A DNA stretch of 26,423 nt. It comes from a virus. A model generated the notes under the pieces. It worked only from the letters and a program-made list of their open reading frames with translations. It ran no database searches and was not told where the DNA came from. Below are positions 1,373 through 17,476 of the stretch, piece after piece (position 1 is the stretch's first letter; the number at the start of each line of letters is the position of its first letter). The stretch is taken from IMG/VR virus record IMGVR_UViG_3300025107_000011, positions 1 through 26,423 of that record; one strand, written 5' to 3'. Both the position numbers and the translations under genes were made by a program.

Positions 1373-1422
1373 GGAGCTTACGTGCGCGCGAGGTTTTGGA
1401 TTAGACGGGAAACGTTTCCAGC
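1373..1422 (-). promoter_or_regulatory. late promoter-like element 1 (lysis operon)
   Basis: Reading on the minus strand, the palindrome GGAAACGTTTCC (1408-1419) is followed by CCTCGCGCGCACG (1393-1381) and TAAGCTCC (1380-1373). The TAAG ends exactly 31 bases past the palindrome, as at the third copy. There are 63 bases between the palindrome and the holin ATG. The same palindrome precedes three other operons at 60-62 bases. The likely role is an activator-dependent late promoter for lysis genes, analogous to Mu Plys. No good sigma70 -35 hexamer is visible and the putative -10 is poor, which fits dependence on an activator. The rest of 1345-1547 holds no gene I can support. Confidence 0.7.
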
Positions 1423-1547
1423 GTATTGAGCGAGACAGGATTTAGCGAGTATGCGTCCAGCCCCGGTGTGTCGAGTGAAACCACTTTCAAAAGATACGTT
1501 CACCCTGCGATATCACCAGGGCTCAACAATACTTAAATGGAGAACGG

Positions 1548-1787
1548 ATGCGACCAGTAATGACACTGAAAAACCTGTTCATCGCAGTGTTCGTTCTGCC
1601 ATTGCGGATCAGCCTGTTTTTACTGTTATGGGCGATTGAGTGCGTCGGGGATTATTTGGCTTACCTTGTGGAACTGATCCCAGGTCTTGAACCAGATCAG
1701 AAGTATGAGGCACTTCGTGCCAACAAAAGGCGGCAGCAGGTGATTGACGGCATGGGCAAGTTGGCAACCAAGAGGAATTCATCATGA
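1548..1787 (+). CDS. small membrane protein, unrecognised
   Basis: A 79-residue frame starting at an ATG with a GGAG site five to six bases upstream. Residues 8-31 (LKNLFIAVFVLPLRISLFLLLWAI) form a probable membrane segment. The C-terminal half is polar and basic, ending KLATKRNSS. I do not recognise the family. It stands alone on the plus strand between the minus-strand lysis operon and minus-strand accessory genes, and its stop lies six bases from the convergent stop of the zinc-ribbon gene. It could be a prophage accessory (moron) gene, for example one altering the host envelope. The evidence is only a ribosome site, hydrophobic pattern and neat fit, so it may be spurious. A second ATG at 1560 is a possible start but lacks a ribosome site. 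Confidence 0.45.
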   Translation: MRPVMTLKNLFIAVFVLPLRISLFLLLWAIECVGDYLAYLVELIPGLEPDQKYEALRANKRRQQVIDGMGKLATKRNSS

Positions 1788-1792
1788 AAGGC

Positions 1793-2335
1793 CTAGTAAT
1801 CATCAAACCCGCGCCGCGAACTGCTTATCGTCATTACCGCTGGGCCATCGCTTGGCGTATAGACAATCAGCGCCGACTTGCAGCGTTGACAGACAAACTG
1901 ACGATGGTTGTGCGAATGCCACTGGGCGAACTGAAAGATGGACTTATTTCCCGCTTCGTAACATTGACAGCAGAACCATGTATTCGAGTTCACGGCTGGT
2001 GCTGTGTGCGGGTCAACCGGCTTTACAACATAGGCAAACGCACCCGCAGCCACCTCGGTAAGCGCGTACTGTTCGCCCTCCATGCGCCATTCGACAAGAC
2101 GGGCAATCTCTTTCACGGATTTGGCATGTTCCTGTTGCAGCAAAGAATTTTCGCGCATCAACGAGGCCTGCTCCGTCTGGAGCTTAAGTATCAAATTTTG
2201 AGCCGCAATCAAATCATCTGTCGCTTTTATTAAGACTGCATTCACCGCTTCGTAGGTTTTTGCATCGAGCGCGGTTTTGAGCATCTCTTTAATTGTTTTG
2301 ACGCTGGACGCAGCGGCCATCAATTCACTCAGCAT
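1793..2335 (-). CDS. coiled-coil protein with C-terminal zinc ribbon
   Basis: A 180-residue protein. The first 85 residues are helical with a coiled-coil stretch (LILKLQTEQASLMRENSLLQ, 48-67). The C-terminal part carries C122-x2-C125 (a CCQC cluster) and C149-x2-C152 (CQRC), a four-cysteine zinc ribbon with about 23 residues between knuckles. I recall this type, with N-terminal helices, a central segment around GAFAYVVKP and a terminal ribbon, as a common small prophage-associated protein of unknown function. It lies on the minus strand downstream of the repressor pair, so it may be expressed from the lysogen. This would suit an accessory or host-modifying role, but that is inference. An overlapping plus-strand frame at 1784-2233 is judged a shadow. 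Confidence 0.75.
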   Translation of the reverse strand: MLSELMAAASSVKTIKEMLKTALDAKTYEAVNAVLIKATDDLIAAQNLILKLQTEQASLMRENSLLQQEHAKSVKEIARLVEWRMEGEQYALTEVAAGAFAYVVKPVDPHTAPAVNSNTWFCCQCYEAGNKSIFQFAQWHSHNHRQFVCQRCKSALIVYTPSDGPAVMTISSSRRGFDDY

Positions 2336-2391
2336 TTCTTATCCCATCCAGTTTTTGTTCGTTCATTTTGGCTTTCTTTCATTTACGCGGA

Positions 2392-3021
2392 TTAAGGTAG
2401 GAGTAAGGTATAGCTTCGCCCCTTTTTTTCTCGGAGAACATCGCCGATTTCAGCACCGTAATACATGGCATAGCGGAACTGCTCGGCGTTGAATTGCGGA
2501 AACTGTTTAGATAGTGTGCTTTGAACGATGCCGGGATTAGCTGCTATCACAGGTAAGGCTTCGCGCATCACATCAGCGTACAGCGGATCATCTCGCGTGA
2601 ATGCGACCATCAATTCTTTGAATAGCTCAGGGATTGGTGGTGGCGCGTTTTCTTCTCTAACTTTATAAGACAGCTCATGCAGGTTTGTGCGCGCTTCGTT
2701 GTAATCTTTTTCTCGCCAAAGCCTGGCAATTTCATCAATCTGATTTATCCAAAAATCGTCGAAGTATTTTCCGGTTGCTATTTCATTTGCTTTGGCGCGA
2801 AGCCGTGAAGCCAGAATGGCATCCTCTGGCGTTGGCTTCCAGAAACGTGCCATTGCACGTAGCAGCCCTGGTGCAGTTTGACTGGTTGAACTGATCTTTC
2901 CATGTGTCAGATATTGACCGTAACACGATTCGATACGTTGCCGCTCTGCATCGGTGAAGGCGGACAGCCACCAACCTTCCAAGTGGAAGTAGGTAATCAA
3001 GCCGCCGATCTGATACTTCAT
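2392..3021 (-). CDS. unrecognised 209-residue protein coupled to the repressor
   Basis: I do not recognise this family. The ATG at 3021 overlaps the stop of the XRE repressor (ATGA), so the two are almost certainly co-translated. The protein is mostly helical with many charged residues. The last 50 residues (PGIVQSTLSKQFP, then a helix with YAMYYGAEIGDVLREKKGRS) have the rhythm of a helix-turn-helix followed by a wing, so a DNA-binding end is possible; this is pattern-based only. No HExxH metalloprotease motif is present, so it is not an ImmA-type antirepressor. Base composition is more AT-rich than the early and late operons, which suggests a recently exchanged immunity module. It could modulate the repressor, or be a defence or superinfection gene expressed in the lysogen. 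Confidence 0.7.
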   Translation of the reverse strand: MKYQIGGLITYFHLEGWWLSAFTDAERQRIESCYGQYLTHGKISSTSQTAPGLLRAMARFWKPTPEDAILASRLRAKANEIATGKYFDDFWINQIDEIARLWREKDYNEARTNLHELSYKVREENAPPPIPELFKELMVAFTRDDPLYADVMREALPVIAANPGIVQSTLSKQFPQFNAEQFRYAMYYGAEIGDVLREKKGRSYTLLLP

Positions 3022-3338
3022 TTTTTAACTGTCGCTGCCAACAAAGCCTCTACGCCAAGTTGAACATCTGGATGACTTGATCGGAAATTAGAGAGCAGTG
3101 CAATTTCGCGCAGGCTAATTGAGACATCAAGTCGATTGGCACCAGCAAGTATTGTAGGTATGTCAAATCCAGCATTTTTTAAGGCTATCAACACATCCCC
3201 GCCTGGCATCGCGCCGCGTTCGTATTTGCCCCACATCTCACGGCTAACCCCAGCAGCAATACCAGCCTCTGCTTGGCTTAATTTCAAGCGTTTCCGCTCC
3301 AGCTTTAATCTTTCTGAAAAAAGAGAATCTGAATTCAT
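3018..3338 (-). CDS. XRE/Cro-type phage repressor
   Basis: A 106-residue DNA-binding protein, probably the lysogeny repressor. The helix-turn-helix is at about residues 20-41 (LSQAEAGIAAGVSREMWGKY, with ERG following), typical of the lambda cI/Cro class. The C-terminal half is a short helical region rather than a peptidase domain, so RecA-stimulated self-cleavage is not expected. I chose the ATG at 3338 because AAGGGG lies five bases before it; the longer frame from 3398 would run through the operator and lacks a site. It is divergent from the early operon, and the palindrome at 3358-3369 between them is the obvious operator. The 209-residue gene is translationally coupled downstream. Unlike Mu c repressor, it belongs to the XRE class. 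Confidence 0.88.
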   Translation of the reverse strand: MNSDSLFSERLKLERKRLKLSQAEAGIAAGVSREMWGKYERGAMPGGDVLIALKNAGFDIPTILAGANRLDVSISLREIALLSNFRSSHPDVQLGVEALLAATVKK

Positions 3339-3347
3339 AAAAACCCC

Positions 3348-3376
3348 TTGACTTAGAGAACTATAGTTCCCATAAT
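3348..3376 (+). promoter_or_regulatory. early promoter with palindromic operator in the spacer
   Basis: TTGACT (3348-3353) and CATAAT (3371-3376) are separated by exactly 17 bases, a good sigma70 promoter pointing into the early operon with the first ATG 34 bases beyond. Within the spacer lies the perfect 12-bp palindrome GAACTATAGTTC (3358-3369), so a bound repressor dimer would block RNA polymerase. The same palindrome lies 20-31 bases upstream of the repressor ATG at 3338, which allows autoregulation. A minus-strand repressor promoter should also lie here, but I see only weak candidate hexamers. The binding protein is inferred to be the adjacent XRE repressor, possibly competing with the gp16-type protein encoded just downstream. 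Confidence 0.8.
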
Positions 3377-3410
3377 TAACCACCTTAAACAACTTCAACG
3401 GAGATTAACA

Positions 3411-3605
3411 ATGAACCTCGATCAAGTAAAGAAACGCTTTGAGCGTGAAGGAAAAACCTATAGCGGCTGGGCGCGTGAAAACGGCTTCAGTCCGGCAACG
3501 GTCATCGCCGTCGTGAATGGCACAAACAAGGGGCGGCGTGGTGCGGCACATGAAGTGGCTGTCAAGCTCGGCCTGAAGAATCAAAACGAAGCACCTGCAC
3601 GCTAA
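3411..3605 (+). CDS. BcepMu gp16-type small DNA-binding protein (first early gene)
   Basis: A 64-residue basic protein, first in the early operon, with GGAG about six bases before the ATG. A helix-turn-helix is predicted over residues 16-38 (SGWARENGFSPATVIAVVNG). It is followed by the family tail GRRGAAHEVAVKLGLK, which I recognise from the phage-associated BcepMu gp16 family. Its place immediately after the early promoter is that of Ner in Mu, a small protein that turns down early and repressor transcription. That role is inferred from position. The tail recurs in a second gene at 4311-4538, so the phage has two paralogues flanking the KilA-N gene. The first would be expected to bind near 3348-3376. 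Confidence 0.78.
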   Translation: MNLDQVKKRFEREGKTYSGWARENGFSPATVIAVVNGTNKGRRGAAHEVAVKLGLKNQNEAPAR

Positions 3606-3615
3606 GGAGATGACC

Positions 3616-4314
3616 ATGAACCACCTAATTATCGCCGACGACCTGATCCATCAAGACACCGAAGGCCGCTATTGCCTGAACGACCTGCACCTCGCCGCAG
3701 GTGGTGAAAAACGCCACCAGCCGTCTAACTTTATGCGCCTCGACTCAACCATCGCGCTGGTCGCAGAAATAGAGTGTTCCTCAGAAGTGAGGAGCGGCAG
3801 CTCAGATGTGAGCCTTGCTTTTTCAACAGTTCGTGGCAAACACCAAGGCACCTACGTCTGCAAGGAACTGGTTTACGCTTACGCCATGTGGATCAGCCCG
3901 AAGTTCCACCTGCAAGTGATCCGCGCTTATGACGCGCTGGTCACCGGACGGCCCAACGCCGCTCCGATGGATGTGCTGGAACAGGTACTGGTGCGCGTTG
4001 ACCGGCTGTGCGGCGTGGTAGAAAAACTGATCGAAACGCTACCCGCCATTCTTGCATCACAGCGGCCCAAGGTACACCGCCAGCCGATCTACGAAGATGA
4101 CCTGCCCACGATACATGCGATGCGCGAACAAGGAGCCACCCTGCCGGAGATCGCCCGCGCCACAGGTTTCGGCCAGACCATGCTGTATCACGTGTTGAAA
4201 GGCGAATACACCATCGCTCTTGATGGTCGCCTCAAGCGTGTTGCTGGTACCAATGACAAGGTTTCCGCAATCGTGCGCCAGGAAGGTCGGACTGAAGTGG
4301 CGGTGTCAGCATGA
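3616..4314 (+). CDS. KilA-N domain protein with C-terminal helix-turn-helix
   Basis: A 232-residue protein. The KilA-N domain covers about residues 15-110: YCLNDLHLAAGGEKRHQPSN, then FMRLDST, then GTYVCKELVYAYAMWISPKF and LQVIRAYD. These are family hallmarks of a DNA-binding module common in phage antirepressors and regulators. Residues near 163-197 (DLPTIHAMREQGATLPEIAR and GFGQTMLYHVLKG) form a resolvase-like helix-turn-helix. The ribosome site AAGGAG at 3604-3609 overlaps an earlier ATG at 3610, so I place the start at 3616, giving correct spacing. The stop overlaps the next start as ATGA. It lies between two gp16-type genes in the early operon and is probably a regulator or antirepressor. 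Its target is not known from sequence. Confidence 0.85.
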   Translation: MNHLIIADDLIHQDTEGRYCLNDLHLAAGGEKRHQPSNFMRLDSTIALVAEIECSSEVRSGSSDVSLAFSTVRGKHQGTYVCKELVYAYAMWISPKFHLQVIRAYDALVTGRPNAAPMDVLEQVLVRVDRLCGVVEKLIETLPAILASQRPKVHRQPIYEDDLPTIHAMREQGATLPEIARATGFGQTMLYHVLKGEYTIALDGRLKRVAGTNDKVSAIVRQEGRTEVAVSA

Positions 4315-4538
4315 ATAACACAGAGACAAGACCGACCAAGGAAGCCATTGACAAGAAACGCGTCGAGCTTGCAGCGCGCGGCGTCAATCTGCGCGAGATG
4401 TGCGATGCCGCCGGTGTGAGCTACCAAGCCTGCCGCGAGGTGTTGTGCGGAAAAGCTACAGGTCGCCGTGGCAATTCCCATAAAGCCGCCGTGTTCCTGG
4501 GCCTCAAGGCTGACCCTGACAAATTATCTGCTCAATAA
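4311..4538 (+). CDS. second BcepMu gp16-type DNA-binding protein
   Basis: A 75-residue protein whose ATG overlaps the KilA-N stop. The centre (REMCDAAGVSYQACREVLCG, residues 30-49) is a predicted helix-turn-helix. The tail GRRGNSHKAAVFLGLK matches the tail of the gene at 3411-3605 and the BcepMu gp16 family. Outside these motifs the two proteins have diverged strongly, with different N-terminal extensions, so they probably recognise different DNA sites or partners. It may act as a Ner- or Cro-like regulator in the early-to-middle switch; this is inferred. A small gap with AAAGGA precedes the next gene at 4551. Confidence 0.75.
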   Translation: MNNTETRPTKEAIDKKRVELAARGVNLREMCDAAGVSYQACREVLCGKATGRRGNSHKAAVFLGLKADPDKLSAQ

Positions 4539-4550
4539 AAAGGAAACATC

Positions 4551-5666
4551 ATGGCTAATGAAACTACTCACGAAGATGATCCGATAGATCTGCTGGGTGA
4601 AGACTCCGAAACCAACAATATGAACCAGCGGCTGACTGTGATGACTACGGATGCAAATAGCAAAAGTATGACTGCTAGCGAGGACACAAATGCGCTTATT
4701 TATCAGCGTGTCGGGCGCAAGGTAGTGCATGACATGTATTCAAAAATTGGTAACGTAACCAATTTACTAGACCTTCAAAAAATCAAGGAATCTAAGCAAT
4801 ACAAGGGTTTTACAGGATTTGTTGACGGAAAACAGGTAATCATTACCACTTGGAACGATTACTGTAAGTTGATTGAAGGTCGTTCTCGTGAATCCATAGA
4901 TTTGGATTTACAAAATCTAGAAAAGCTCGGCCCTGAATTATTTGAGGCTATGGGGCGCGTCGGGTTAGGCCCTGCCACCATGCGCACTATCCGCCAGCTG
5001 CCGGAAGATGATCGGGCCGTGATTGAACAAGCTGCACAGGCCAACAGCAAGGATGAGATCGTCGATTTGATCGATGGGCTGGTCACCAAGCACACCCGTG
5101 AAAAATCCTCTCTGCATGAAGAAATCAAAGAACTGGGCGAGACGATAGGAAACCACCAGAAGCAGTACGACAAGCTCAGCACCGAGCATGAAAACGTGTC
5201 CCGCGAATATAACCGCCTGACCCGCACAAAGAAGCCCGGCGAATCGACTTACAACGCCCGCACCTTTGAGGTTCGCCATGAATCAGCCGCGCTGGAATAT
5301 GGCTCACGCATCCATGTCGACGCGCTGGAAGTGATGTTCGATGCAGTATTGGGCGAAGACGCTCCTGCACAAGAAAGAGAATTGCAACTCCATGCACTGG
5401 GCCTGGCTGCTGGCGCGCTGTATGCCCGCGCAGAATCGTTATATGCCCGGCTGAAAGACGAGCTTGACGACTTAATGCCGATTCAGCCCTCCAGCAAATA
5501 CATGCTGCATGACGATGAACGCAGCCGCCTGGATGCCAGTGTCTCCATGATCGATGTCAACTTTCACCGCAAAAAAGGCGCGCGTGAATACGAGCGAAAT
5601 GAAGATGCGCCGGTTGGGCGTGGGCGCCCAAAGGGAAGTAAAAACAAGGATAAAGAGGCAGAGTAA
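4551..5666 (+). CDS. coiled-coil protein with AT-hook-like tail, upstream of transposase
   Basis: A 371-residue protein of a type seen in transposable phages but without a function I can name. Residues 70-160 form a compact region (KGFTGFVDGKQVIITTWNDY, then GRVGLGPATMRTIRQLPEDD). Residues 180-225 are a strong coiled coil (KSSLHEEIKELGETIGNHQK). Residues 245-310 are helical. The C-terminus, about 355-366 (VGRGRPKGSKNK), is an AT-hook-like motif that inserts into the minor groove of AT-rich DNA. Its place directly before the transposase, with stop and ATG overlapping by one base (TAATG), suggests a role in DNA transactions such as transposition or replication. The first 120 codons are visibly more AT-rich than the rest, so a recombination joint inside the gene is possible. 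Confidence 0.7.
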   Translation: MANETTHEDDPIDLLGEDSETNNMNQRLTVMTTDANSKSMTASEDTNALIYQRVGRKVVHDMYSKIGNVTNLLDLQKIKESKQYKGFTGFVDGKQVIITTWNDYCKLIEGRSRESIDLDLQNLEKLGPELFEAMGRVGLGPATMRTIRQLPEDDRAVIEQAAQANSKDEIVDLIDGLVTKHTREKSSLHEEIKELGETIGNHQKQYDKLSTEHENVSREYNRLTRTKKPGESTYNARTFEVRHESAALEYGSRIHVDALEVMFDAVLGEDAPAQERELQLHALGLAAGALYARAESLYARLKDELDDLMPIQPSSKYMLHDDERSRLDASVSMIDVNFHRKKGAREYERNEDAPVGRGRPKGSKNKDKEAE

Positions 5667-7348
5667 TGAGCGCGCTCAAATTGCCAAGAGGTATCGTCGT
5701 GAGCCAGCTAACCGAACTTCACCCTGCGCGTCCTGCCTTGCGTGCTGAAATCATCCCGCTCAATGCGCACAAGAAGTCGCTGTTTGAACGTTCGGATGCG
5801 GCTAAAAAACAGACTGCGCTTGACTGGGAGACGGTCGTGCTGGCCGTGAACCGAATCAAGGGAAGTGGCAGTACGACGCAGGCGGTACGACTGTTACTGA
5901 ACTATGCAATCGATGGCGATCTTGAGCCGCATGTATCCCGCGCCTTTTATGCCGTCGCGGTCGGTAAGAACAAGAAGATCGGTCGCTTACCGACCCGTGC
6001 CACCATCTTTGAAAAGCTGGCTTCCTACAAGGAGTCAGGTTTAGACGGCTTGATCAAGGAGCACAGAGGCCGTGTGCGGATTGAGGGCGGCTGGGAAGGT
6101 TTAGCACTGGAACTGTTCAGCCAGCCGAGCAAGCCGGACATATCGGCGGTGCATCGTGTGCTGGTCGAGGTGCAGGGGATGAATTGCAGTTACGACCAGG
6201 TGCGCGCTTATCTGAACGGGTTACCGTCCATGCTGGGTCGGATGAGTCCTGCCCGTATCGGCAAGAACCTCTACCGGCTGACCGAGAAGGCGTACATCCG
6301 CCGCTCGACTGAAAACGCGCTACCCGGCGATGTGTATGTCGCGGACGGTTATCGCGCCGACGTGTATCTGGCACATCCGCTCACAGGCGACATCTACCGC
6401 CCTGAATTGTCGGTGGCGATGGATTTACGCAGCCGCTTTATCGTGGGCTGGCGCGCAGATGAACATGAAGGTGCCTTTGCGGTACAGGGCATGTGGGCTG
6501 AGGCGTTTGCGCGCTGGAACCATGTACCGCCGTTCCTGTATGTGGATAACGGCAGCGGCTACAAGAACTCGTTCGTCGATGACGACGTGACCGGATTTTA
6601 TGCCCGTGTCGGCGTGCAGCAGGTGATTCACTCCATTCCCGGCAACCCGCACGGCAAAGGCTGGATTGAGCAGTTCTTCCGCATCATGAAAGATGATTTT
6701 CTACGCATGTGGATGCCGGCTTTCTACTGCGGTGGCGGCATGGCAGATGAGGTGCGCAACAAAGTGGTGCGCGAAGTGAAGGCCGGCCGCCTGACGCCGC
6801 CGACACTGGCACAGTTTGTCGCTGCGTTTAACGATTGGTTGAGCCGTTACCACACTCGCCCTCACCCGGAAGACAAGCGCGTGACGCGAGGTGAGTTGTG
6901 GGCAGGCCTTGAGCCGATCCCGCCGCATGCCACCGTACAGGAAATGAAGCGCGAACAGGTGCGGCTCACGGTACGCCGTGCCAGCCTCAAGCATTACAAG
7001 CGTGAATACGGACACGCCGACTTGCATGCCTACAACGGGCAGCTGGTGGTGCTGGAATACGACCTGATGGATGACCGTATTGCTGTGATACGTGCGCTGG
7101 ACGGCAAGTGGATCTGCGATGCGAATCTGATCAAGTCTATCGATGCCGTCGTGCCGAATCGACTGGAAGAAAAACGCTTGCTGCGCAAGGAGACGGCCAT
7201 CAAACGGTTACAGAAAAAGATTGATGAACAAACGGCGCGCGGCGGATTGCTGATTGATGCCGAAGCTATCGCACAAGGCGCTTTGGAGGGCGATTACACA
7301 CTGATTGAAGAACAGGACGCACCGATTAACTTGCTTGATTTTGACTAA
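5666..7348 (+). CDS. A: Mu A-like DDE transposase
   Basis: Catalyses end cleavage and strand transfer for phage integration and replicative transposition. The protein has 560 residues; Mu A has 663. N-terminal residues 45-210 hold helix-turn-helix DNA-binding segments (for example LPTRATIFEKLASYKESGLD). The RNase H-like integrase core follows, with the catalytic triad visible as D227 (VYVADGYRADV), D294 (LYVDNGSGYKN) and E335 (GNPHGKGWIEQFFR), so 40 residues separate the second D and E. A Mu-type C-terminal beta region around 430-500 and a basic, helical tail follow; the tail probably contacts the ATPase. It overlaps the preceding gene by one base and is followed 11 bases later by the MuB-type ATPase. 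No transposase-binding end repeats were found in this window. Confidence 0.95.
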   Translation: MSALKLPRGIVVSQLTELHPARPALRAEIIPLNAHKKSLFERSDAAKKQTALDWETVVLAVNRIKGSGSTTQAVRLLLNYAIDGDLEPHVSRAFYAVAVGKNKKIGRLPTRATIFEKLASYKESGLDGLIKEHRGRVRIEGGWEGLALELFSQPSKPDISAVHRVLVEVQGMNCSYDQVRAYLNGLPSMLGRMSPARIGKNLYRLTEKAYIRRSTENALPGDVYVADGYRADVYLAHPLTGDIYRPELSVAMDLRSRFIVGWRADEHEGAFAVQGMWAEAFARWNHVPPFLYVDNGSGYKNSFVDDDVTGFYARVGVQQVIHSIPGNPHGKGWIEQFFRIMKDDFLRMWMPAFYCGGGMADEVRNKVVREVKAGRLTPPTLAQFVAAFNDWLSRYHTRPHPEDKRVTRGELWAGLEPIPPHATVQEMKREQVRLTVRRASLKHYKREYGHADLHAYNGQLVVLEYDLMDDRIAVIRALDGKWICDANLIKSIDAVVPNRLEEKRLLRKETAIKRLQKKIDEQTARGGLLIDAEAIAQGALEGDYTLIEEQDAPINLLDFD

Positions 7349-7359
7349 GGGGAAACAAG

Positions 7360-8325: not shown

Positions 8326-8326
8326 A

Positions 8327-10562: not shown

Positions 10563-10564
10563 TC

Positions 10565-11020
10565 ATGAGCGACCTGTCCCGTCACTACATTCAGCTGATC
10601 GGTATCGCCAAGAGCTGGGCGCTCAAGAATATGCCCGGCTGGAGCGATGAGACGCATCAGGATTTACTGATGCGTCATGGCGCGGTGCGCAGGGCAGGCC
10701 GTGTCTCCTCAAAATCACTTAACGTGCCGCAGCTGGGCGCGGTGCTGGATGACTATGAGCGGCGCGGCTGGCCGCGCGTCAAACAGTACGCGGCTAAAGG
10801 TTCTATCAAGCCTAAGCCGATTCCGCCACGTATCTCCCAGCTGGTAAAGCTGTGGGGCAAGCTGGGACTGGCCGGCAAGGTGACGACGGCAACCCGTCCC
10901 GCCTTGCTGGCCTGGTGCGCACGCCAGACTGCGCATGAGGTAGCGGATCTGGACAGTCTGAGCGTTGAGGAATGCCAGAACCTGATTGAAGCCATGAAGA
11001 GCTGGCTGGGTCGCGCCTGA
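10565..11020 (+). CDS. gemA: GemA-like regulatory protein (Mu gp16 family)
   Basis: A 151-residue protein of the GemA/DUF1018 family. In Mu, GemA acts with Mor in the early-to-middle transition and modulates host gene expression and DNA supercoiling. The N-terminus has YIQLIGIAKSWALKNMPGWS, with the typical pattern of short helix, conserved tryptophan and DETHQDLL. A basic linker (KPKPIPPRISQL) leads to the C-terminal domain with KLWGKLGLAGKVTTATRPAL. It lies directly before the Mor-type gene, two bases apart, exactly as in Mu. The ATG lies two bases after the DUF3164 stop. Confidence 0.85.
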   Translation: MSDLSRHYIQLIGIAKSWALKNMPGWSDETHQDLLMRHGAVRRAGRVSSKSLNVPQLGAVLDDYERRGWPRVKQYAAKGSIKPKPIPPRISQLVKLWGKLGLAGKVTTATRPALLAWCARQTAHEVADLDSLSVEECQNLIEAMKSWLGRA

Positions 11021-11021
11021 A

Positions 11022-11438
11022 ATGAACACGCCCGATCACAGCTTTGATTATCCGTCGGTGGATGAAGCGCTGTTGCGCTCGTTCCCGCCGGTGCTGCACG
11101 CTGTGGTGCGGGCGTTGGGCTATACCCGTGCGCGGGACTTTTTACATCTGCAAGGTGGCGTCAATGTCTCCATCCCGAAGCATCATAGCCAGACATTGGG
11201 TTTGCAGCCGGATGAACTGAACCGTCTGCGCCACAGCCTAGCGGCTCACCTGGATGCCAATGGGCGGGTCACGCTGCCCAAGGCGGACAAACTCATCATC
11301 CGTGTGCGGGATACGCAGATCCGCCAAGAAAAGCAGCACTCCAGCATCCGCCTGCTGGCGCGCCAGCATAGTCTGAGTTCCAGGCAGATTCAGAACATCT
11401 GTCGGGAAGGCGACGACCGTCAGCTGGATTTATTCTGA
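11022..11438 (+). CDS. mor: Mor/C-type transcription activator
   Basis: A 138-residue protein of the Mor/C family, dimeric activators of Mu middle (Mor) and late (C) promoters. The N-terminal half is a likely dimerisation domain (YPSVDEALLRSFPPVLHAVV). The C-terminal helix-turn-helix spans about 105-128 (LLARQHSLSSRQIQNI) and ends with a short tail DDRQLDLF. The region LQGGVNVSIPKHHSQTLGLQ is typical of Mor. It lies one base after gemA. No other Mor/C gene is seen, so it may serve both middle and late roles. It is followed by a 220-base spacer with the second palindromic late element, which makes it the best candidate to bind the GGAAACGTTTCC sites; this is inference. Confidence 0.85.
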   Translation: MNTPDHSFDYPSVDEALLRSFPPVLHAVVRALGYTRARDFLHLQGGVNVSIPKHHSQTLGLQPDELNRLRHSLAAHLDANGRVTLPKADKLIIRVRDTQIRQEKQHSSIRLLARQHSLSSRQIQNICREGDDRQLDLF

Positions 11439-11586
11439 CTTTGACCTCAAAGCGGGTTCAGTAATAGCGCTAATCGCCTTCGAAAAACGCCTTCTCTCGT
11501 TTAAATGATTTTCAGCAATACCGATGTAGCCTGCCGCATTAACAAGCCCTTCCAGCCCCTCACAGCCGCTTTCGTCCTGACCATCG

Positions 11587-11638
11587 GGAAACGTTTCCAG
11601 CGGTGTCACAAAACCCCCGTCACGCGAAGATGCACTCC
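11587..11638 (+). promoter_or_regulatory. late promoter-like element 2 (head operon)
   Basis: The palindrome GGAAACGTTTCC (11587-11598) is followed by AGCGG and, 31 bases past the palindrome, an AAG ending at 11629 within CACGCGAAG. A CTCC follows at 11635-11638. Sixty bases separate the palindrome from the protease ATG at 11659. This is the position of Mu late promoter PI, which precedes gene I. I see no -35 hexamer and only a poor -10, consistent with an activator-dependent promoter. The spacer 11439-11586 contains no gene I can support. Confidence 0.75.
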
Positions 11639-11658
11639 ACTTACTCAGGAGCTGCACG

Positions 11659-12666
11659 ATGCATCACCCAGCCAAACCCAAAACCGCCTGCGCCGCACTG
11701 ACCTTTGAAATTACTCAGGGGGCGGACGGTGTCGCCACCGATGCGCACCTGCTGCCGGTTGGTCCATTCCGTTCGACGGATGTGCGTCCGGTGGATTGCG
11801 CCGCCTGGCAACTGGATGCAGCGATTGCGGCGCGCGTCATTGCACGTGCCGCCGGACTCAAGAATGACTTCCTGATCGATTACGAACACCAGAGCCTGCG
11901 CGCTGCACAGAACGGCAAGCCCGTGCCTGCTGCCGGTTGGTTCAAGGGCTCCAATCTGCAATGGCGCGATCCGTCGACAGATTCGGGACAAGCCGGGCTG
12001 TTCGCTACCGGCATCCGCTGGGTGGACGAAGCCAAACAAATGATTGCCGAACTGAAGTATCGCTACATCAGCGCGGTTTTTTTCTACAACCCGGCAACCG
12101 GTGAGGTGATGGAGATCGTTTCCGTCGCACTGACCAATACGCCGGGGGTGGACGGACTGGAGGCACTTGCTGCCCTGGCTCGTGACCTGTCTGTTTATAA
12201 CCCCGAAGAAGGAGATGTCGAGATGGAAAAGAAGCTTGCGGAACTCACCGCTCAAAATAACGGCTTGTCTACGCAGATGGCCGCGCTGACTACGGCGAAC
12301 ACTGGCCTGACCAGTCAGCTGGCGGCATTGACTGCCGAGCGTGACGGATTGTCCGCCAAGGTTGCGGCGGCTGAAACAGAAAAAGTCGCTGCCGCGCTGG
12401 CCGCCGAAAAAACACAGCACGCCGCGCTGATGACAGCGGCTTTAACAGGCGGCCGTTTGACCCCTGCGCAAAAACCCTGGGCAGAAAAGCAAAGCTTTGC
12501 CGCGCTGACCGAGTACCTGGATGTAACCAGTCCGCTGACGATGTTGACCAAACAAGCCGGTGAGCATGAGGCAGCTGGCGCACAGGGCTTGAGTGAAGTC
12601 GAGCTGGCGATGTGTACCCGGCTGGGCGTAACGCCGGAAGCGTTCAAGCTGAACAAGGGCAAGTAG
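11659..12666 (+). CDS. I: Mu gpI-like prohead protease with fused scaffold
   Basis: First gene of the head operon. In Mu, gpI is a protease that matures the capsid and its C-terminal part forms the scaffold. The 335-residue protein carries the family signature DYEHQSLRAAQNGKPVPAAG (residues 74-93, histidine 77 probably catalytic), GLFATGIRWVDEA near 113-125, and SAVFFYNPATGEVMEIVSVA at 138-157. Residues 189-260 are an alanine-rich coiled coil with repeated LTAQ/LTTAN/LTAER heptads. An internal ATG at 12223 with its own strong ribosome site marks the scaffold product. The ATG follows CAGGAGC by about eight bases. No terminase, portal or minor head gene precedes it, unlike Mu. Confidence 0.92.
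   Translation: MHHPAKPKTACAALTFEITQGADGVATDAHLLPVGPFRSTDVRPVDCAAWQLDAAIAARVIARAAGLKNDFLIDYEHQSLRAAQNGKPVPAAGWFKGSNLQWRDPSTDSGQAGLFATGIRWVDEAKQMIAELKYRYISAVFFYNPATGEVMEIVSVALTNTPGVDGLEALAALARDLSVYNPEEGDVEMEKKLAELTAQNNGLSTQMAALTTANTGLTSQLAALTAERDGLSAKVAAAETEKVAAALAAEKTQHAALMTAALTGGRLTPAQKPWAEKQSFAALTEYLDVTSPLTMLTKQAGEHEAAGAQGLSEVELAMCTRLGVTPEAFKLNKGK
12223..12666 (+). CDS. Z: internal in-frame scaffold protein (Mu gpZ type)
   Basis: The ATG at 12223 is codon 189 of the protease gene and in frame. AAGGAG at 12209-12214 lies eight bases upstream, far better than expected by chance inside a gene. The 147-residue product starts MEKKLAELTAQNNGLSTQMA, a long coiled coil, and ends with a basic helix (AFKLNKGK) suited to bind the head protein. 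In Mu, gpZ is made in this way from the same gene and acts as the internal scaffold that is removed during maturation. Assigned from the ribosome site and analogy. Confidence 0.78.
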   Translation: MEKKLAELTAQNNGLSTQMAALTTANTGLTSQLAALTAERDGLSAKVAAAETEKVAAALAAEKTQHAALMTAALTGGRLTPAQKPWAEKQSFAALTEYLDVTSPLTMLTKQAGEHEAAGAQGLSEVELAMCTRLGVTPEAFKLNKGK

Positions 12667-12725
12667 GCGGCTTGTCGGTCACCTGTATTTCCAACCCATA
12701 TTTCAATTCAACAGGATAAAAAACC

Positions 12726-13628
12726 ATGTTAACCGCCGCGCAGATTGCAGCACTACACACCACGCTCAAGGCAAGATTCAATGCAGGTCTTGCCGCCTCA
12801 CCGGACAACTGGAAGAAAGTCGCCAAGCTGATCAACAGCGACGGAAAATCCAATACCTACGCCTGGCTGTCGCAGTTCCCCGCATTCCGCGAATGGGTCG
12901 GTGCGCGTTTGCATAAGAACTTGTCGGAAAAAGCGTACACCGTCGTGAACCGGAAGTTTGAGAGCACCATTGATGTGCTGCGTACCGACATCGAAGACGA
13001 TAATTTCAGTCAGTACGGCGGTATTGCCGAGAGTTTCGGCCAGTCTGTCGTGGATATGAAGAACGACTTGATTTTCCAAGCGCTGCAAGCAGGTTTCACC
13101 AGTCTGTGCTACGACGATCAATTTTTCTTCGACGTCGATCACCCGACGGCGGCAAACGAAGACGGCACGGGCGCAATTACGGTGCAAAGCAACGTGCAGG
13201 CGGGTTTGCTTGAGCCCTGGGTGTTACTTTGTACCGAGCGCGCACCGAGCGCGATCTATCTGCAGGAGCGCATCGCGGCGCAGTTTGAATCGCTCACCAG
13301 CACGAATACCACGCAAGTGTTCGAACAAGACTCGTATGCCTTCGGCGGCCGCTGGCGCGGTGCGGCGGCGTATGGCTTCTGGCAGTGCGCGTTTGGCTCA
13401 AAGGCCGCACTGGATGCGACAAACTTCAATGCGGCTTACACCGCGATGATGAAGTTCAAAGGGGACGGCAATCGCAAACTGGGCATCACGCCAGATCTGC
13501 TGGTCGTCGGCCCCGACAACCAGGCGGCAGCTGAAGCGTTGCTCAAGGCGGCTCAAAGCGCCAACGGCGCTTCAAACATCAACTACAACAAGGTGAAGTT
13601 GCTGGTTACGCCCTGGTTAGGTCTGTAA
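12726..13628 (+). CDS. T: major head (capsid) protein, Mu gpT-like
   Basis: A 300-residue protein recognised as Mu gpT, the icosahedral shell subunit. Characteristic segments are the start LTAAQIAALHTTLKARFNAG, WKKVAKLINSDGKSNTYAWL (29-48), the WVGARLHKNLSEKAYTVVNR region around 57-76, FESTIDVLRTDIEDDNFSQY and YDDQFFFDVDHPTA near 129-142. It lies 59 bases after the protease-scaffold gene, as in Mu. The ribosome site is weak (GGATAAAAAACC) compared with the expected high expression, which may instead be set by mRNA level. Confidence 0.94.
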   Translation: MLTAAQIAALHTTLKARFNAGLAASPDNWKKVAKLINSDGKSNTYAWLSQFPAFREWVGARLHKNLSEKAYTVVNRKFESTIDVLRTDIEDDNFSQYGGIAESFGQSVVDMKNDLIFQALQAGFTSLCYDDQFFFDVDHPTAANEDGTGAITVQSNVQAGLLEPWVLLCTERAPSAIYLQERIAAQFESLTSTNTTQVFEQDSYAFGGRWRGAAAYGFWQCAFGSKAALDATNFNAAYTAMMKFKGDGNRKLGITPDLLVVGPDNQAAAEALLKAAQSANGASNINYNKVKLLVTPWLGL

Positions 13629-13694
13629 CAAACGACTCTCGACACAGGGGGCGGCATGCCGTTCCCCTGCTTGATAACGCAAAAGAGGTAAGCG

Positions 13695-14132
13695 ATGAAA
13701 AAATTATATATCCGCATTATGGTTGGTCTGGTAATGGCCCGCCATTTCCGTTGTGGCACCGAGTTTTCCGGCAAATGGAAGACGGTCGATGCCGATGCCG
13801 CCACCGAAACAAGTTACCGCGAAGATCAGTGTCTGGAAGTCTCCGAAATCAAGCCGCTGGATTTCGTTGATCCGGACGCCGCTGCCGCCGAAGCTCAAGC
13901 AACTGCTGATGCTCTGGCATCTTCCCAAGTTATTGCTCCGACTGATCCCGCCGTGCGCGCAGAGGCTATCAAGGTCGCCATCGCCCAGCTGGATGTAGGC
14001 AATGCCTCGTTGTGGACTGGCAACAACGTACCGAAGGTCGAGGCGATCATTGCGATCACTGGCTGGCCAGTTTCTGCGGCTGAGCGCGATGTAGTTTTCA
14101 ATGAAATCGTCGTTCAAGGTGTTGCCGAATAA
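13695..14132 (+). CDS. Mu gp35-like / HI1506-like head-region protein
   Basis: A 145-residue protein between the major head protein and gp36, where Mu carries gp35. The N-terminal part (MKKLYIRIMVGLVMARHFRC, then FSGKWKTVDADA) and the C-terminal 50 residues (VRAEAIKVAIAQLDVGNASL, followed by KVEAIIAITGWPVSA) resemble the two-part proteins of Mu-like phages such as FluMu. The C-terminal module has the LD...W...PKV.AI......S..ER pattern of a small helical domain, often seen in these connector proteins. A linker of alanine-rich residues lies between. The ATG follows AGAGGTAAGC. The stop overlaps the gp36 start. Function is probably in head completion or decoration; uncertain. Confidence 0.65.
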   Translation: MKKLYIRIMVGLVMARHFRCGTEFSGKWKTVDADAATETSYREDQCLEVSEIKPLDFVDPDAAAAEAQATADALASSQVIAPTDPAVRAEAIKVAIAQLDVGNASLWTGNNVPKVEAIIAITGWPVSAAERDVVFNEIVVQGVAE

Positions 14133-14629
14133 TGGGCTTCGCCACCCGATCTGATTTGCTGGCGCGATCCAATGCCCGTCGTCTGGCCCAGCTGGCTGTT
14201 CCTACCGACGTGGCGATGTTGCCGGATCATGCCTTGCGTGCCGCAATCGAGGGGGGAGTACTCACGGGCTACACCGCAGATGAGCAGGCTGTCATTGCAC
14301 AGGCTTTGCACGCGATTGACACGGCACTGACCGATGCGGACGAACTGGTAGTGAGCTTCGGTATTCCGGCAATCGTTCGCACGCCGTTGCTGGCGCGGCT
14401 GGCATCCACCATTGCGCTGTTCTACTTACAGGGCGGCGAGCGCATGACGGAACCGGTGCAGAAGGCGTATGACGCGGCGGTAGAGACGTTCCGTCAACAT
14501 GCCAATGGCAAGCTGAATCTGCTTCCACCTTTGCCGACCGATCCGGTGCTGGTCGATGGTGGTGCAGAGATTGCATCCAGTCCAGGTCGTTATGTGGCAT
14601 CGGCAGGATCAACAGGGAACGGCTGGTGA
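14132..14629 (+). CDS. Mu gp36-like head-tail connector (DUF1320)
   Basis: A 165-residue protein matching the DUF1320/gp36 family of head-tail joining proteins in Mu-like phages. It begins FATRSDLLARSNARRLAQLA, the usual helical opening. A middle segment with ALHAIDTALTDADELVVSFG precedes RTPLLARLASTIALFYLQGG at about 88-107, and the tail is rich in proline. It overlaps the preceding stop (TAATG) and its own stop is overlapped by the GTG of gp37 (GTGA), so the head-tail genes are coupled. It probably acts as an adaptor below the portal. Confidence 0.86.
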   Translation: MGFATRSDLLARSNARRLAQLAVPTDVAMLPDHALRAAIEGGVLTGYTADEQAVIAQALHAIDTALTDADELVVSFGIPAIVRTPLLARLASTIALFYLQGGERMTEPVQKAYDAAVETFRQHANGKLNLLPPLPTDPVLVDGGAEIASSPGRYVASAGSTGNGW

Positions 14630-15108
14630 TTTCGCTCACTCCGCTGATCTTGCACCTGACGCCGAAACCGGTTGGCTTTGACGGGATTTGGTTCAGGCAA
14701 GTGGCGGGTGCTGCGGAATATGCCAGGTTAAACCGCGACGCGTTGCCGTTGCCTGCTGCCTGGGTAGTACGCGCCGGCGACAAGGTGCGCCATGCGGGTA
14801 TCGGGCTGGAAGATACGGACTTTGTGTTTGATGTGGTGATCGCAATTGAAAACGTGCGCACGCATACCCAGGGCGACACTGATGATGAGCTGCTGAAGTA
14901 TCGCCGGGCCGTGAAGAGTTTGCTGCTGGGCTGGGAGATTGAGCAGGATGTACGCCCGATCAAGTGGGATGGCGGGCAGATTCTTGAATACACCGATGGC
15001 GATATTTACTGGCGTGACCGTTATGAATTCACCGCTTTGATTAGCAATTATTTAGCCGACCCCGTTCCGGCTTACAACGGGCTAACTTTAACAGGAGGCA
15101 GATTATGA
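14626..15108 (+). CDS. Mu gp37-like tail-completion protein (DUF1834)
   Basis: A 160-residue protein in the position of Mu gp37. The GTG start at 14626 overlaps the previous stop. Features are PLILHLTPKPVGFDGIWFRQ, then LPLPAAWVVRAGDKVR at about 41-56, VFDVVIAIENVRTHTQGDTD near 67-86 and ILEYTDGDIYWRDRYEFTAL near 119-138. This fits DUF1834/gp37-type proteins, thought to be tail terminators that cap the tube before head attachment. The stop is overlapped by the sheath ATG, whose site AGGAGG is inside this gene. Confidence 0.86.
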   Translation: MISLTPLILHLTPKPVGFDGIWFRQVAGAAEYARLNRDALPLPAAWVVRAGDKVRHAGIGLEDTDFVFDVVIAIENVRTHTQGDTDDELLKYRRAVKSLLLGWEIEQDVRPIKWDGGQILEYTDGDIYWRDRYEFTALISNYLADPVPAYNGLTLTGGRL

Positions 15109-16568
15109 TTTCGTTTCAAAACATTCCACCCGCACTGCGTTATCCCGGTGCCTACGTCGAAATCGACGGCTCTATGGCGGGTCTGGGCGGCGATATTCCC
15201 GGCGTGTTGCTGGTCGGGCAAAAGTTACCTGTCGGCACGGCACCCGCCGGCACCATCGTTCGCTTGTCGAGCGTGGCAGATGCCATCGCCAAAGCAGGTG
15301 CCGGGTCGATGCTGGCCAACATGGCCGCACGCTACCGCGCGATTGATCCGGTGCTGGATATTTACATGTTGCCCTATGCCGATAATGTGGCCGGGGTAGC
15401 CGCTGCCGGCACGATTACGGTAATAGCCGCGCCTGCCGCTAGCGGCACGTTGGCTCTGTACATCGCGGGTGTCCTGGTGAATGTGGGCATCACATCAGGC
15501 GCGACACCCGCCGCCGTGGCCACGGCGATTGCTGCGGCTATCACCGCAAGCGGTAGCGCTGTGATGGTGACAGCGGCAGCGGTCGCAACTGTCGTTACAC
15601 TGACCTCGATACACAAGGGCAGTTGCGGAAACGACATCGATCTGCGCACCAGCATCTATGGCGAGCCGACCCCGGCAGGCCTAGGGTTGTCGATTGTTGC
15701 GATGACCGGCGGCGCGGGAGACCCGGTGCCGGGCGATCTGCATCAGATCATCGGGCAAAACTGGTATCGCTATGTGGCGCTCGGCATCAACGATGCCGCC
15801 ACGCTGGCCGCCTGGGCAGCTGAGAGCAAAGTGCGCTACCTGCCGCCGATTCAGGCCGGATTCCGCGCCTTCACCGCATTTCGCGGCGACTATGCCAGTG
15901 CAGCAACATTCGGTCTCACCAAGAACTACGAGCATATTTCTGCGCTGTCGTTATTCGTCAATCCGACCTCGCCCTGGGAAGCAGCCGCGATGGTATGCGC
16001 CGCCGCCGCGCCGCGTCTGTACAACAACCCGGTGGAATCGCTGGAAGGCGTTCCCTTGCCTGGCATGATCGGGCTGGCCTATCACGACTGGACGAACGCC
16101 AACAGCCTGCTGTTTAAGGGCATGAGCGTGATGCAGGTGGCGAAGGATGGTTCGTGCAGTATCAAGCGGCTGGTCTCGATGTACCAGTATCGGCCTGATG
16201 GCAGTGCCGATGATTCGTATCTGGACATCAACGCCGCAGAGGTGATGGAACGCATCCGCTATGAGCAACGCATCGGAGCTATCAAGCAGTTCACCGGCAC
16301 GGCAGCGGCGAAGAGCAACGAAGGATACCGCCCCGGCTTGCGCATCACTACCGTGGATGACGTGCGCTCCTATCTGCTGACGTTGTACAAGCTAAAACTG
16401 ATGCAGGAGTTCGGCTGGGTACAGGAATACGAGTTCTATAAAACGAAGCTGGTGGTCGAACAGGATCCGACTAACCCGAGCCGCTTCAATTATCTGGATA
16501 CGCCGGTGGTGTTGTCGCCGTTCTACATCCTGGCAGGCCGCAGCCAGTTCAGAAAGACAGCGGCATAG
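15105..16568 (+). CDS. L: contractile tail sheath protein, Mu gpL-like
   Basis: A 487-residue sheath subunit. The N-terminus (FQNIPPALRYPGAYVEIDGS) and DIPGVLLVGQKLPVGTA are typical of Mu-type sheath proteins. A central variable insertion, residues 95-200, is rich in alanine, glycine and threonine. The conserved C-terminal region includes LPGMIGLAYHDWTNANSLLF, then a segment with the conserved RLVSMYQYRPDGSADDSYLD near 354-373, and DDVRSYLLTLYKLKLM. The C-terminus ends RSQFRKTAA. The sheath surrounds the tube and contracts on infection. AGGAGG lies 8 bases upstream of the ATG. The tube gene begins 58 bases further on. Confidence 0.95.
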   Translation: MISFQNIPPALRYPGAYVEIDGSMAGLGGDIPGVLLVGQKLPVGTAPAGTIVRLSSVADAIAKAGAGSMLANMAARYRAIDPVLDIYMLPYADNVAGVAAAGTITVIAAPAASGTLALYIAGVLVNVGITSGATPAAVATAIAAAITASGSAVMVTAAAVATVVTLTSIHKGSCGNDIDLRTSIYGEPTPAGLGLSIVAMTGGAGDPVPGDLHQIIGQNWYRYVALGINDAATLAAWAAESKVRYLPPIQAGFRAFTAFRGDYASAATFGLTKNYEHISALSLFVNPTSPWEAAAMVCAAAAPRLYNNPVESLEGVPLPGMIGLAYHDWTNANSLLFKGMSVMQVAKDGSCSIKRLVSMYQYRPDGSADDSYLDINAAEVMERIRYEQRIGAIKQFTGTAAAKSNEGYRPGLRITTVDDVRSYLLTLYKLKLMQEFGWVQEYEFYKTKLVVEQDPTNPSRFNYLDTPVVLSPFYILAGRSQFRKTAA

Positions 16569-16626
16569 GTAGGGTTCCAACCCAACCATATCTGGCGATT
16601 AAAACGTATTCACAGGAGATTTAAAC

Positions 16627-16986
16627 ATGCAACTCAATAATATCCGCACCGTTTCGGTGCCTTCAATCGGTAAGCTGCAACTGGCCGATAAACCGGGTAC
16701 GTTTACGCCGAGCGGTGTGAAGCGCGACCACAAGGGCGGCCGCCTCGCCGAAGACGGCGGTTATACCGAAACGGGTACGCCTGCCAAACTGGAGTTGTCC
16801 ATCAACCTGCATGGCGGCGTGGACGTATCGGCTTTGAATAACATCAAGGATGAAACGGTCACGGTGCGACTGGCCGACGGACATGTACATCATCTGCCGA
16901 TGGCCTTTGTCACCGAGCCGATTGGCGTGGGCGACGGCGAAAGCAAGCTGACCATCATGGCTAACATTTCTGAACAAATTTCGTAG
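16627..16986 (+). CDS. M: tail tube protein, Mu gpM-like
   Basis: A 119-residue protein forming the inner tube through which DNA passes. Recognised by gene order after the sheath and by the family pattern: TVSVPSIGKLQLADKPGTFT at 9-28, a glycine-rich loop (HKGGRLAEDGGYTETG), then PAKLELSINLHGGVDVSALN and GDGESKLTIMANISEQIS at the end. The size fits Mu gpM (118 residues as I recall). An AGGAGA site precedes the ATG. It ends eight bases before the tail chaperone gene. Confidence 0.92.
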   Translation: MQLNNIRTVSVPSIGKLQLADKPGTFTPSGVKRDHKGGRLAEDGGYTETGTPAKLELSINLHGGVDVSALNNIKDETVTVRLADGHVHHLPMAFVTEPIGVGDGESKLTIMANISEQIS

Positions 16987-16994
16987 GAACGACG

Positions 16995-17264
16995 ATGAAA
17001 ACCTTGACGCTTAAACACCCGATAATCGTCGGTAAAACGACGATTGAAGAACTGAAATTCCGCGACCACGCGACTGCAGATGACCTGCTGGCCTTTGATG
17101 AGCGTGGTGCCAACCGTCAGACCATCGTGCTGATCGCCAACCTGACCGGCACCGACGAAGAACTGATTAAAAAACTGCATGTCACGGACTATCGTGCTGC
17201 CGATGCCATCGCCTCAGAGTTGATCAAGCCTGAGGCTGACGAAAAAAACGCGCCCGGGTCCTGA
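16995..17264 (+). CDS. tail assembly chaperone, zero-frame product (Mu gp41-like)
   Basis: An 89-residue protein between tube and tape-measure genes, the position of tail-assembly chaperones (lambda G, Mu gp41). It has LKHPIIVGKTTIEELKFRDH at 6-25 and DDLLAFDERGANRQTIVLIA near 28-47, typical of Mu gp41. These proteins bind the tape measure and keep it soluble while the tube grows. The gene contains A_AAA_AAC at 17243-17249 near its end, which yields a longer product. The zero frame stops at TGA 17262-17264 after DEKNAPGS. Confidence 0.9.
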   Translation: MKTLTLKHPIIVGKTTIEELKFRDHATADDLLAFDERGANRQTIVLIANLTGTDEELIKKLHVTDYRAADAIASELIKPEADEKNAPGS

Positions 17265-17389
17265 CCGCCTGTGCCCTCGTAGCCCGAGGGCTGCATCAGG
17301 ACTTGCGCTATGTAAAATCGCTGCCCCTGGCTGAGTTGTTTATATGGGCGAAGATAGCGGCGGCGATGGAACAAAGGAAGTTTGATTGA
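16995..17389 (+). CDS. frameshifted tail assembly chaperone (about 131 residues)
   Basis: A -1 slip at 17243-17249 joins 85 codons of the chaperone to a second frame that stays open to TGA 17387-17389. The extension reads RARVLTACALVARGLHQDLR and then VKSLPLAELFIWAKIAAAM, followed by a short basic end. The W, A and AM pattern is the usual C-terminal domain of gpGT-type extensions, which contacts the tape measure. The extension has no start codon or ribosome site of its own, and the frame has no other explanation. In Mu the equivalent overlap uses a different (-2) shift as I recall. Joining must be proven by protein or ribosome data. Confidence 0.85.
17243..17249 (+). other. programmed -1 ribosomal frameshift site
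   Basis: In the zero frame the codons read GAA AAA AAC, making the canonical X_XXY_YYZ heptamer A_AAA_AAC. It is 12 bases before the zero-frame stop codon (TGA 17262). The -1 frame continues for 46 codons. A 7-bp stem with five-base loop, GCCCTCG and CGAGGGC (17273-17291), lies 23 bases downstream. The spacer is longer than the usual 5-9 bases, so its stimulating role is uncertain. Confidence 0.9.
17273..17291 (+). other. possible frameshift-stimulating stem-loop
   Basis: GCCCTCG (17273-17279) pairs perfectly with CGAGGGC (17285-17291) around loop TAGCC. It lies downstream of the slippery heptamer, inside the frameshifted extension. There is no T run after it, so it is not a terminator. The role as a stimulator is inference. 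Confidence 0.45.
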
Positions 17390-17426
17390 TAGATGGGCGG
17401 CCAGTTGGTCGCCTTTTTTCATGCCC

Positions 17427-17476
17427 GCTGGAAACGTTTCCAGCCTGAACCCGCCTCGCGCGCACGCGTAAGCTCC
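17427..17476 (+). promoter_or_regulatory. late promoter-like element 3 (tape measure and tail genes)
   Basis: An 18-bp perfect palindrome, GCTGGAAACGTTTCCAGC (17427-17444), is followed by CCTCGCGCGCACG (17454-17466), CG, and TAAGCTCC (17469-17476). The TAAG ends 31 bases past the GGAAACGTTTCC core, as in elements 1 and 2. The tape-measure ATG follows 62 bases after the core. The CCTCGCGCGCACG and TAAGCTCC blocks are shared with element 1 on the opposite strand. It lies in the only true gap (17390-17503) within the tail genes, where a fresh promoter makes sense. Confidence 0.75.

What the first reader, a model, noticed from the sequence alone, without database searches (positions are those of the whole stretch)
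1373..17476. Elements 1 and 3 share a second conserved block and fixed spacing on opposite strands
On the minus strand element 1 has CCTCGCGCGCACG then TAAGCTCC; element 3 has the same CCTCGCGCGCACG, a CG insertion, then TAAGCTCC. The first block slides by two bases, but TAAG stays 31 bases from the palindrome in both. That suggests the palindrome-to-TAAG distance is under selection (helical phasing between activator and polymerase), while the GC block is less constrained or a spreading copy. It also argues for one element having been copied by inversion.
Basis: seen in the sequence. Interest (0 to 1): 0.7.

Follow-up and report, generated by a model that had tools for sequence, protein, structure and literature searches.

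The report
Phage late promoters inside RNA hairpins
The repeated palindromes are switches that turn on a Mu-like phage's late genes, set at an exact distance from where transcription starts, and most of these switches also form one half of an RNA hairpin that probably silences the same genes when they are transcribed by accident from further upstream.

Summary
GGAAACGTTTCC occurs four times in this Mu-like phage contig, before the lysis, head-protease, tape-measure and baseplate-J genes. "TAAG" is the start of a -10 hexamer. In 93 of 94 non-redundant elements from related phages an xAxxxT hexamer sits exactly 27 nt after the palindrome; the exception is 28 nt. Mu's four C-dependent promoters also share one spacing, so these are Mor/C-type late promoters, a known kind. 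The GC block is a lysis-promoter feature (10 of 11 lysis elements); copying by inversion is not needed.

The unexpected part: TAAGCTCC is also the 5' arm of a hairpin whose 3' arm holds the Shine-Dalgarno sequence (SD). This recurs with compensatory changes at lysis and tape-measure promoters and, by swap tests, at head promoters, but not at J. Most of the 5' arm lies upstream of the predicted start, so the hairpin should form only in read-through RNA: predicted SD accessibility rises from 0.00-0.11 to 0.28-0.39 in RNA starting at +1. At tape-measure genes it is usually also a terminator. It works like the T4 lysozyme leader; Mu Plys and PI look alike. Function is inferred, untested.

The parts
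1408..1419 (-). Palindrome of the lysis promoter (element 1), proposed Mor/C-type activator site
   Evidence: conserved at lysis promoters of relatives
1375..1380 (-). -10 hexamer TAAGCT of the lysis promoter, 27 nt after the palindrome
1351..1377 (-). Hairpin GCTCCAA (1371-1377) with TTGGAGC (1351-1357, contains the SD of the holin gene, start codon 1344); predicted transcription start about 1368
   Evidence: fold; covariation in relatives
1381..1394 (-). CG-rich spacer block typical of lysis promoters
11587..11598 (+). Palindrome of the head (gene I) promoter, element 2
11626..11631 (+). -10 hexamer GAAGAT of the head promoter
11631..11656 (+). Hairpin 11631-11638 with 11648-11656 (contains the SD of gene I, start codon 11659)
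   Evidence: swap test
17430..17441 (+). Palindrome of the tape-measure promoter (element 3)
17469..17474 (+). -10 hexamer TAAGCT of the tape-measure promoter
17472..17498 (+). Hairpin GCTCCGGAC (17472-17480) with GTCC-T-GGAGT (17489-17498, contains the SD, start codon 17504); predicted start 17481; the T-run of relatives is missing here
   Evidence: covariation; T-run counts
22646..22657 (+). Palindrome of the J promoter (element 4), inside the gp46-like coding sequence
22685..22690 (+). -10 hexamer CATAAT of the J promoter; no SD hairpin in this class
11022..11438 (+). Mor/C-family activator gene, proposed to bind the palindromes
   Evidence: PF08765 28.4 bits against cut-off 24.9; phrog_836 late transcriptional activator

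Best explanation
The four elements are the activator-dependent late promoters of a Mu-like phage. The phage's single Mor/C-family protein binds the palindrome (inferred) and positions RNA polymerase on a -10 hexamer exactly 27 nt downstream (spacing shown by comparison). Three of the four promoters carry a second layer: from about the -10 hexamer to position -1, the promoter DNA also encodes the 5' arm of an RNA hairpin whose 3' arm contains the SD of the first gene. RNA that reads in from upstream (repressor side, early or middle genes, or the preceding tail operon) carries both arms, so translation of holin, protease or tape measure is blocked; at the tape measure of most relatives a T-run makes the hairpin a transcription terminator as well. 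RNA started by the late promoter lacks the 5' arm, so the SD is free. Shown by computation: conserved position, covariation, predicted accessibility switch. Inferred: start sites, the binding protein, and the effect in cells.
For: Spacing 27 nt in 93 of 94; about four sites per complete relative, 16 of 26 contigs over 33 kb with exactly four; all 67 loci with a Mor hit have the palindrome at most three mismatches away. Hairpin: own against exchanged arms, 0, 0 and 2 of 10000 permutations for head, tape measure and lysis, 1653 for J; covariation 0 of 500 shuffles at tape measure and lysis; the base at -9 inside the -10 hexamer covaries with the SD side (GC 18, AU 8, GU 3 of 30). SD access in read-through and +1 RNA: 0.11/0.39, 0.00/0.35, 0.04/0.28, J 0.28/0.29, control genes 0.39; the change falls between -8 and -1. 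Mu Plys and PI show the same layout. T4 gene e is a proven precedent.
Against: No start site, binding or expression data. RNAalifold found no common stem in head elements. With contiguous helices only, lysis is weaker (325 of 10000) and J nears significance (652 of 10000). In the window, RNA starting at -3 instead of +1 would stay mostly closed at lysis and head (0.07, 0.09). At head elements the gain rests on a modest absolute access (0.39). The conserved hexamer at J overlaps conserved codons. Sharing of CTCC/GGAG alone gives some pairing in exchanged arms.
Confidence: 0.75

Rival explanations
1. The hairpins are ordinary intrinsic terminators of the upstream operon, packed against the next promoter for compactness; SD pairing is a side effect.
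For: Tape-measure hairpins are followed by T4 or more in 28 of 31.
Against: Head 0 of 36 and TTTTT after lysis stems only 2 of 11, and the window's own tape-measure copy lacks the T-run, yet the SD pairing is kept.
Confidence: 0.2
2. Transcription starts further upstream, so the hairpin stays in late mRNA and works there, as a 5' stabiliser or a translational control.
For: Start sites are not mapped.
Against: The hexamer has A-11/T-7 in 93 of 94, also at J where no hairpin exists; the predicted +1 is A or G in 61 of 94 and -1 a pyrimidine in 82 of 94; pairing reaches into the hexamer itself.
Confidence: 0.1
3. The palindrome binds a host regulator rather than the phage Mor/C protein.
For: No binding data; palindromes with a CG centre resemble LacI-family operators (recalled, not tested).
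Against: Sites track the phage's Mor gene in 67 of 67 loci with a hit and are absent in 6 of 8 without (confounded by relatedness); they sit at late operons in phages of many hosts.
Confidence: 0.1
4. One reading: element 3 is a recent inverted copy of element 1.
For: Exact 13-mer plus TAAGCTCC shared by elements 1 and 3.
Against: The block belongs to lysis promoters across the group; the L039 lysis spacer ends like the window's tape-measure spacer; downstream arms differ.
Confidence: 0.1

Closest known systems
Phage Mu C-dependent late promoters (Plys, PI, PP, Pmom) and the Mor-dependent Pm
   Same: Mor/C-family activator, dyad upstream of a -10 element, one fixed spacing in all four promoters, set before lysis and gene I
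   Different: Different palindrome (GGAAAYRTTTCC instead of a TTAT/ATAA dyad), centre 33.5 instead of 31.5 nt before the hexamer; one PF08765 gene instead of two; promoters at tape measure and J instead of P and mom
T4 gene e (also soc, 49, I-TevI) read-through-silenced leaders (PMC3014915, section 29 read)
   Same: SD or start codon hidden in upstream-started RNA; the late promoter lies over the 5' strand of the hairpin
   Different: Here a sigma70-like -10 with a Mor/C site, three operons per genome, and a terminator form at the tape measure; no experiment yet
IS10 and IS50 transposase leaders (recalled, not read)
   Same: Read-through RNA hides the transposase ribosome site; own-promoter RNA does not
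   Different: Insertion sequences, not late phage operons; no activator site

Membership tests
Mu-type Mor/C-activated late promoter | Genome encodes a Mor/C-family activator | tested here: met
   PF08765 above cut-off in the window; 29 of 43 homologues match PF08765 at E 0.001; Mu C in the PDB at E 0.016; Foldseek to C and Mor weak, E 0.8 and 1.6
Mu-type Mor/C-activated late promoter | Dyad at fixed distance upstream of a -10 element at late operons | tested here: met
   27 nt in 93 of 94; Mu fixed too, but with a distance 2 nt shorter
Mu-type Mor/C-activated late promoter | Activator binds the dyad and is required for transcription | not testable with these tools
   co-occurrence only
T4 gene e-type read-through-silenced leader | SD or start codon paired in upstream-started RNA | tested here: met
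   predicted; covariation
T4 gene e-type read-through-silenced leader | Late promoter lies over the 5' strand of the hairpin, so its own RNA lacks that strand | tested here: inconclusive
   promoter position by conservation and accessibility scan; start sites not mapped
T4 gene e-type read-through-silenced leader | Translation measured low in long RNA and high in short RNA | not testable with these tools
   needs reporters
T4 gene e-type read-through-silenced leader | T4 late promoter TATAAATA | tested here: not met
   hexamers TAAGCT, GAAGAT, CATAAT with an upstream palindrome; so it works like this family but is not a T4 member
Intrinsic terminator | Stem followed by a T-run | tested here: inconclusive
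   tape measure 28 of 31, head 0 of 36, lysis 2 of 11 with TTTTT; absent in the window's own tape-measure copy

The most novel reading that the evidence does not exclude
Late promoters of Mu-family phages are generally written into the 5' arm of an RNA lock: the same bases that polymerase melts at -12 to -1 hide the ribosome site, or terminate transcription, in any RNA that runs in from upstream. Late timing would then have a second, RNA-level layer, present also at Mu Plys and PI, that the Mu papers seen here do not mention.
Probability: 0.55. Interest if true: 0.75.

Novelty: new variant of a known kind. Interest (0 to 1): 0.62.

Why it matters
Temperate phages must keep holin and protease silent in a lysogen and early in infection although transcription leaks in from neighbours. 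Here promoter and RNA silencer share the same bases, so one short element gives both activation and leak protection, repeated across operons and hosts. If Mu itself does this, a textbook phage has an untested layer of late-gene control that simple reporter pairs can check. The element also marks late operons when annotating Mu-like prophages.

Tried and rejected
Copying of element 1 into element 3: rejected because relatives carry the block at lysis promoters. TAAG as the selected word: rejected. RNAalifold on head elements found no pairs; I report this as a failure and rely on swap tests there. A search for relatives with the single Mor protein found none in viral contigs and one weak phage hit; head-protein searches worked instead. 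Literature: ten searches; none listed a paper whose title or abstract start describes such hairpins at Mu-type late promoters, but subscription papers (for example the original Mu promoter mapping) are not held. Eight other Mu-like phage records at gene I: Shewanella MuM16-1 and Mannheimia 3927AP2 look similar by eye, the other six are unclear; no formal test was made.

Rows dropped: head L059 and L075; tape measure L097, L113, L056, L085; lysis L145; nine of 16 J elements without a usable SD or start. One search uses only sites with a recognised downstream gene: 163 labelled sites, 94 after removing those 75% or more identical; 25 unlabelled sites and 2 sites labelled by the head protein were left out. 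Alignments A2-A4 hold 34 of 36 head, 30 of 31 tape-measure and 10 of 11 lysis elements.
Full report
What the window is. The window is a whole viral contig of 26,423 bases. It encodes a Mu-like phage: transposase (phrog_310), GemA, a Mor/C-family activator (11022-11438), Mu-like protease I, tape measure, baseplate J, and a leftward lysis operon with holin and a transglycosylase.

The observation. GGAAACGTTTCC occurs four times: 1408, 11587, 17430, 22646. The sites lie before holin (minus strand), gene I, tape measure and J. The 13-mer and TAAGCTCC of the finding are real. After 27 nt the four elements read TAAGCT, GAAGAT, TAAGCT, CATAAT.

Spacing. Relatives were found through the major head protein, with further contig stretches; the final set has 127 loci with the window. 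94 non-redundant elements remained after removing those 75% or more identical: head 36, tape measure 31, J 16, lysis 11. 93 have xAxxxT exactly 27 nt after the palindrome; L013 has it at 28. The best other spacing gives 17 of 94. A at -11 and T at -7 are each present in 93 of 94. Elements were chosen by palindrome (at most one mismatch) and downstream gene, not by hexamer. Head loci with two mismatches in the palindrome keep the spacing in 5 of 5. Mu's four late promoters also have one dyad-to-hexamer spacing. So the fixed spacing is the known architecture of C-type late promoters in a new branch.

Number of sites. Of 26 related contigs over 33 kb searched whole, 16 have exactly four sites at one mismatch or less; the range is 1 to 5; the reversed pattern gives 0 or 1.

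Activator. Of 14 records searched with PF08765, Mu has two genes, eight have one, and five have none at the threshold. Among 75 loci with gene I and 700 nt upstream, all 67 with a Mor hit have the palindrome (at most three mismatches); of 8 without a hit, 6 lack it and 2 have it. This is confounded by relatedness. A profile of 43 homologues finds Mu C in the PDB weakly (E 0.016); the predicted model (mean pLDDT 82) matches C and Mor only weakly.

GC block. CGCGCG lies in the spacer of 10 of 11 lysis, 5 of 31 tape-measure, 3 of 36 head and 1 of 16 J elements. It is therefore a lysis-promoter feature, shared by some tape-measure promoters. In some lysis elements the outer stem reaches into it (for example L144, L095, L069).

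The hairpin. In the window GCTCCAA pairs with TTGGAGC (lysis), TGCA and CTCC with GGAG and TGCA (head), and GCTCC and GGAC with GTCC and GGAGT (tape measure); the 3' arm holds the SD each time. Swap test: mean duplex energy of own arms against arms exchanged between phages is -9.3 against -6.1 (head), -15.4 against -12.6 (tape measure), -11.6 against -7.7 (lysis) and -8.1 against -7.7 (J); permutations reaching the own value are 0, 0, 2 and 1653 of 10000. With contiguous helices only they are 0, 0, 325 and 652 of 10000. On alignments, the tape-measure stem has 97.4% of cells paired and covariation 0.280 against 0.163 shuffled (0 of 500); lysis has 88.6% and 0.451 against 0.230 (0 of 500). The pair at -9, inside the -10 hexamer, is GC in 18, AU in 8 and GU in 3 of 30 tape-measure sequences. 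For head elements RNAalifold found nothing, except in a 7-sequence subset.

What it should do. Predicted SD unpaired probability in read-through RNA and in RNA from +1: head 0.11 and 0.39 (higher in 32 of 34), tape measure 0.00 and 0.35 (27 of 27), lysis 0.04 and 0.28 (10 of 10), J 0.28 and 0.29 (3 of 7). Control genes of the same phages average 0.39 (97 sequences). Moving the 5' end of the RNA shows the change between -8 and -1. So RNA from the promoter behaves like that of an ordinary gene, while RNA from upstream does not. A T-run follows the tape-measure hairpin in 28 of 31 and the head hairpin in 0 of 36. The exact start matters: in the window, RNA starting at -3 stays mostly closed at lysis and head (0.07 and 0.09).

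Mu. At Plys, GCCATC lies just after the -10 hexamer and pairs with GATGGC over the lys start codon. At PI, CTGCTC pairs with GAGCAG just before the SD. Relatives with different bases keep the layout, for example L150 PI (ATGGTCCG with CGGACCAT over the start codon) and L153 Plys. Predicted access of the start region, read-through against +1: Mu Plys 0.38 and 0.64, Mu PI 0.35 and 0.50, L150 PI 0.31 and 0.53, L153 Plys 0.26 and 0.51; L150 Plys is weaker, 0.49 and 0.60. Mu Pmom goes the other way (0.85 and 0.46). I could not place the start of L151 lys or of gene I in L153 and L154 with confidence.

Precedent. The review PMC3014915, section 29 read in full, describes the same logic for T4 gene e and names soc, 49 and I-TevI. 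For PMC4461284 I read the introduction and passages; for PMC4390567 and PMC4378225 passages; for PMC9239132 passages and the outline with abstract. None of these passages mentions such a hairpin at Mu-type late promoters. That is a statement about those passages and the ten searches listed in Tried and rejected only.

Judgement. The hairpin overlapping the promoter is the surprising part: a new variant of a known control principle, well supported by comparison and untested at the bench.

Noticed in passing
window 1408-1459; L039, L046, L130, L131, L134, L044, L045, L140: Lysis palindromes often have an xAxxxT hexamer at 27 nt on both sides (6 of 15 holin-labelled sites, against 1 of 65 head, 2 of 50 tape-measure and 2 of 33 J sites), with a start codon and SD following on the other side in several. 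They may be divergent late promoters.
   Followed up: partly
window 22646-22690: The J promoter lies inside the coding sequence of the gp46-like gene (22316-22723), so palindrome and -10 hexamer also encode protein; the conservation there may be partly codon-driven.
   Followed up: no
L127 (phage Mu) 35734-35780: Mu Pmom/com shows a long stem GCGAATTGAT/ATCAATTCGC around the com ribosome site whose 5' arm begins at the predicted start, the opposite arrangement: the site is less accessible in RNA from +1.
   Followed up: no
L158 (Shewanella phage MuM16-1) about 215-251: A terminator-like hairpin with a T-run ends right at the gene I start codon, with CATCAT just before its 5' arm, so the terminator form may also occur at head genes in other Mu-like phages.
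   Followed up: no
window 3-3398: The lysis operon lies at the left end and runs leftward on the same strand as a repressor-like HTH gene (3018-3398), unlike Mu; read-through from the repressor side could reach the holin in a lysogen.
   Followed up: no
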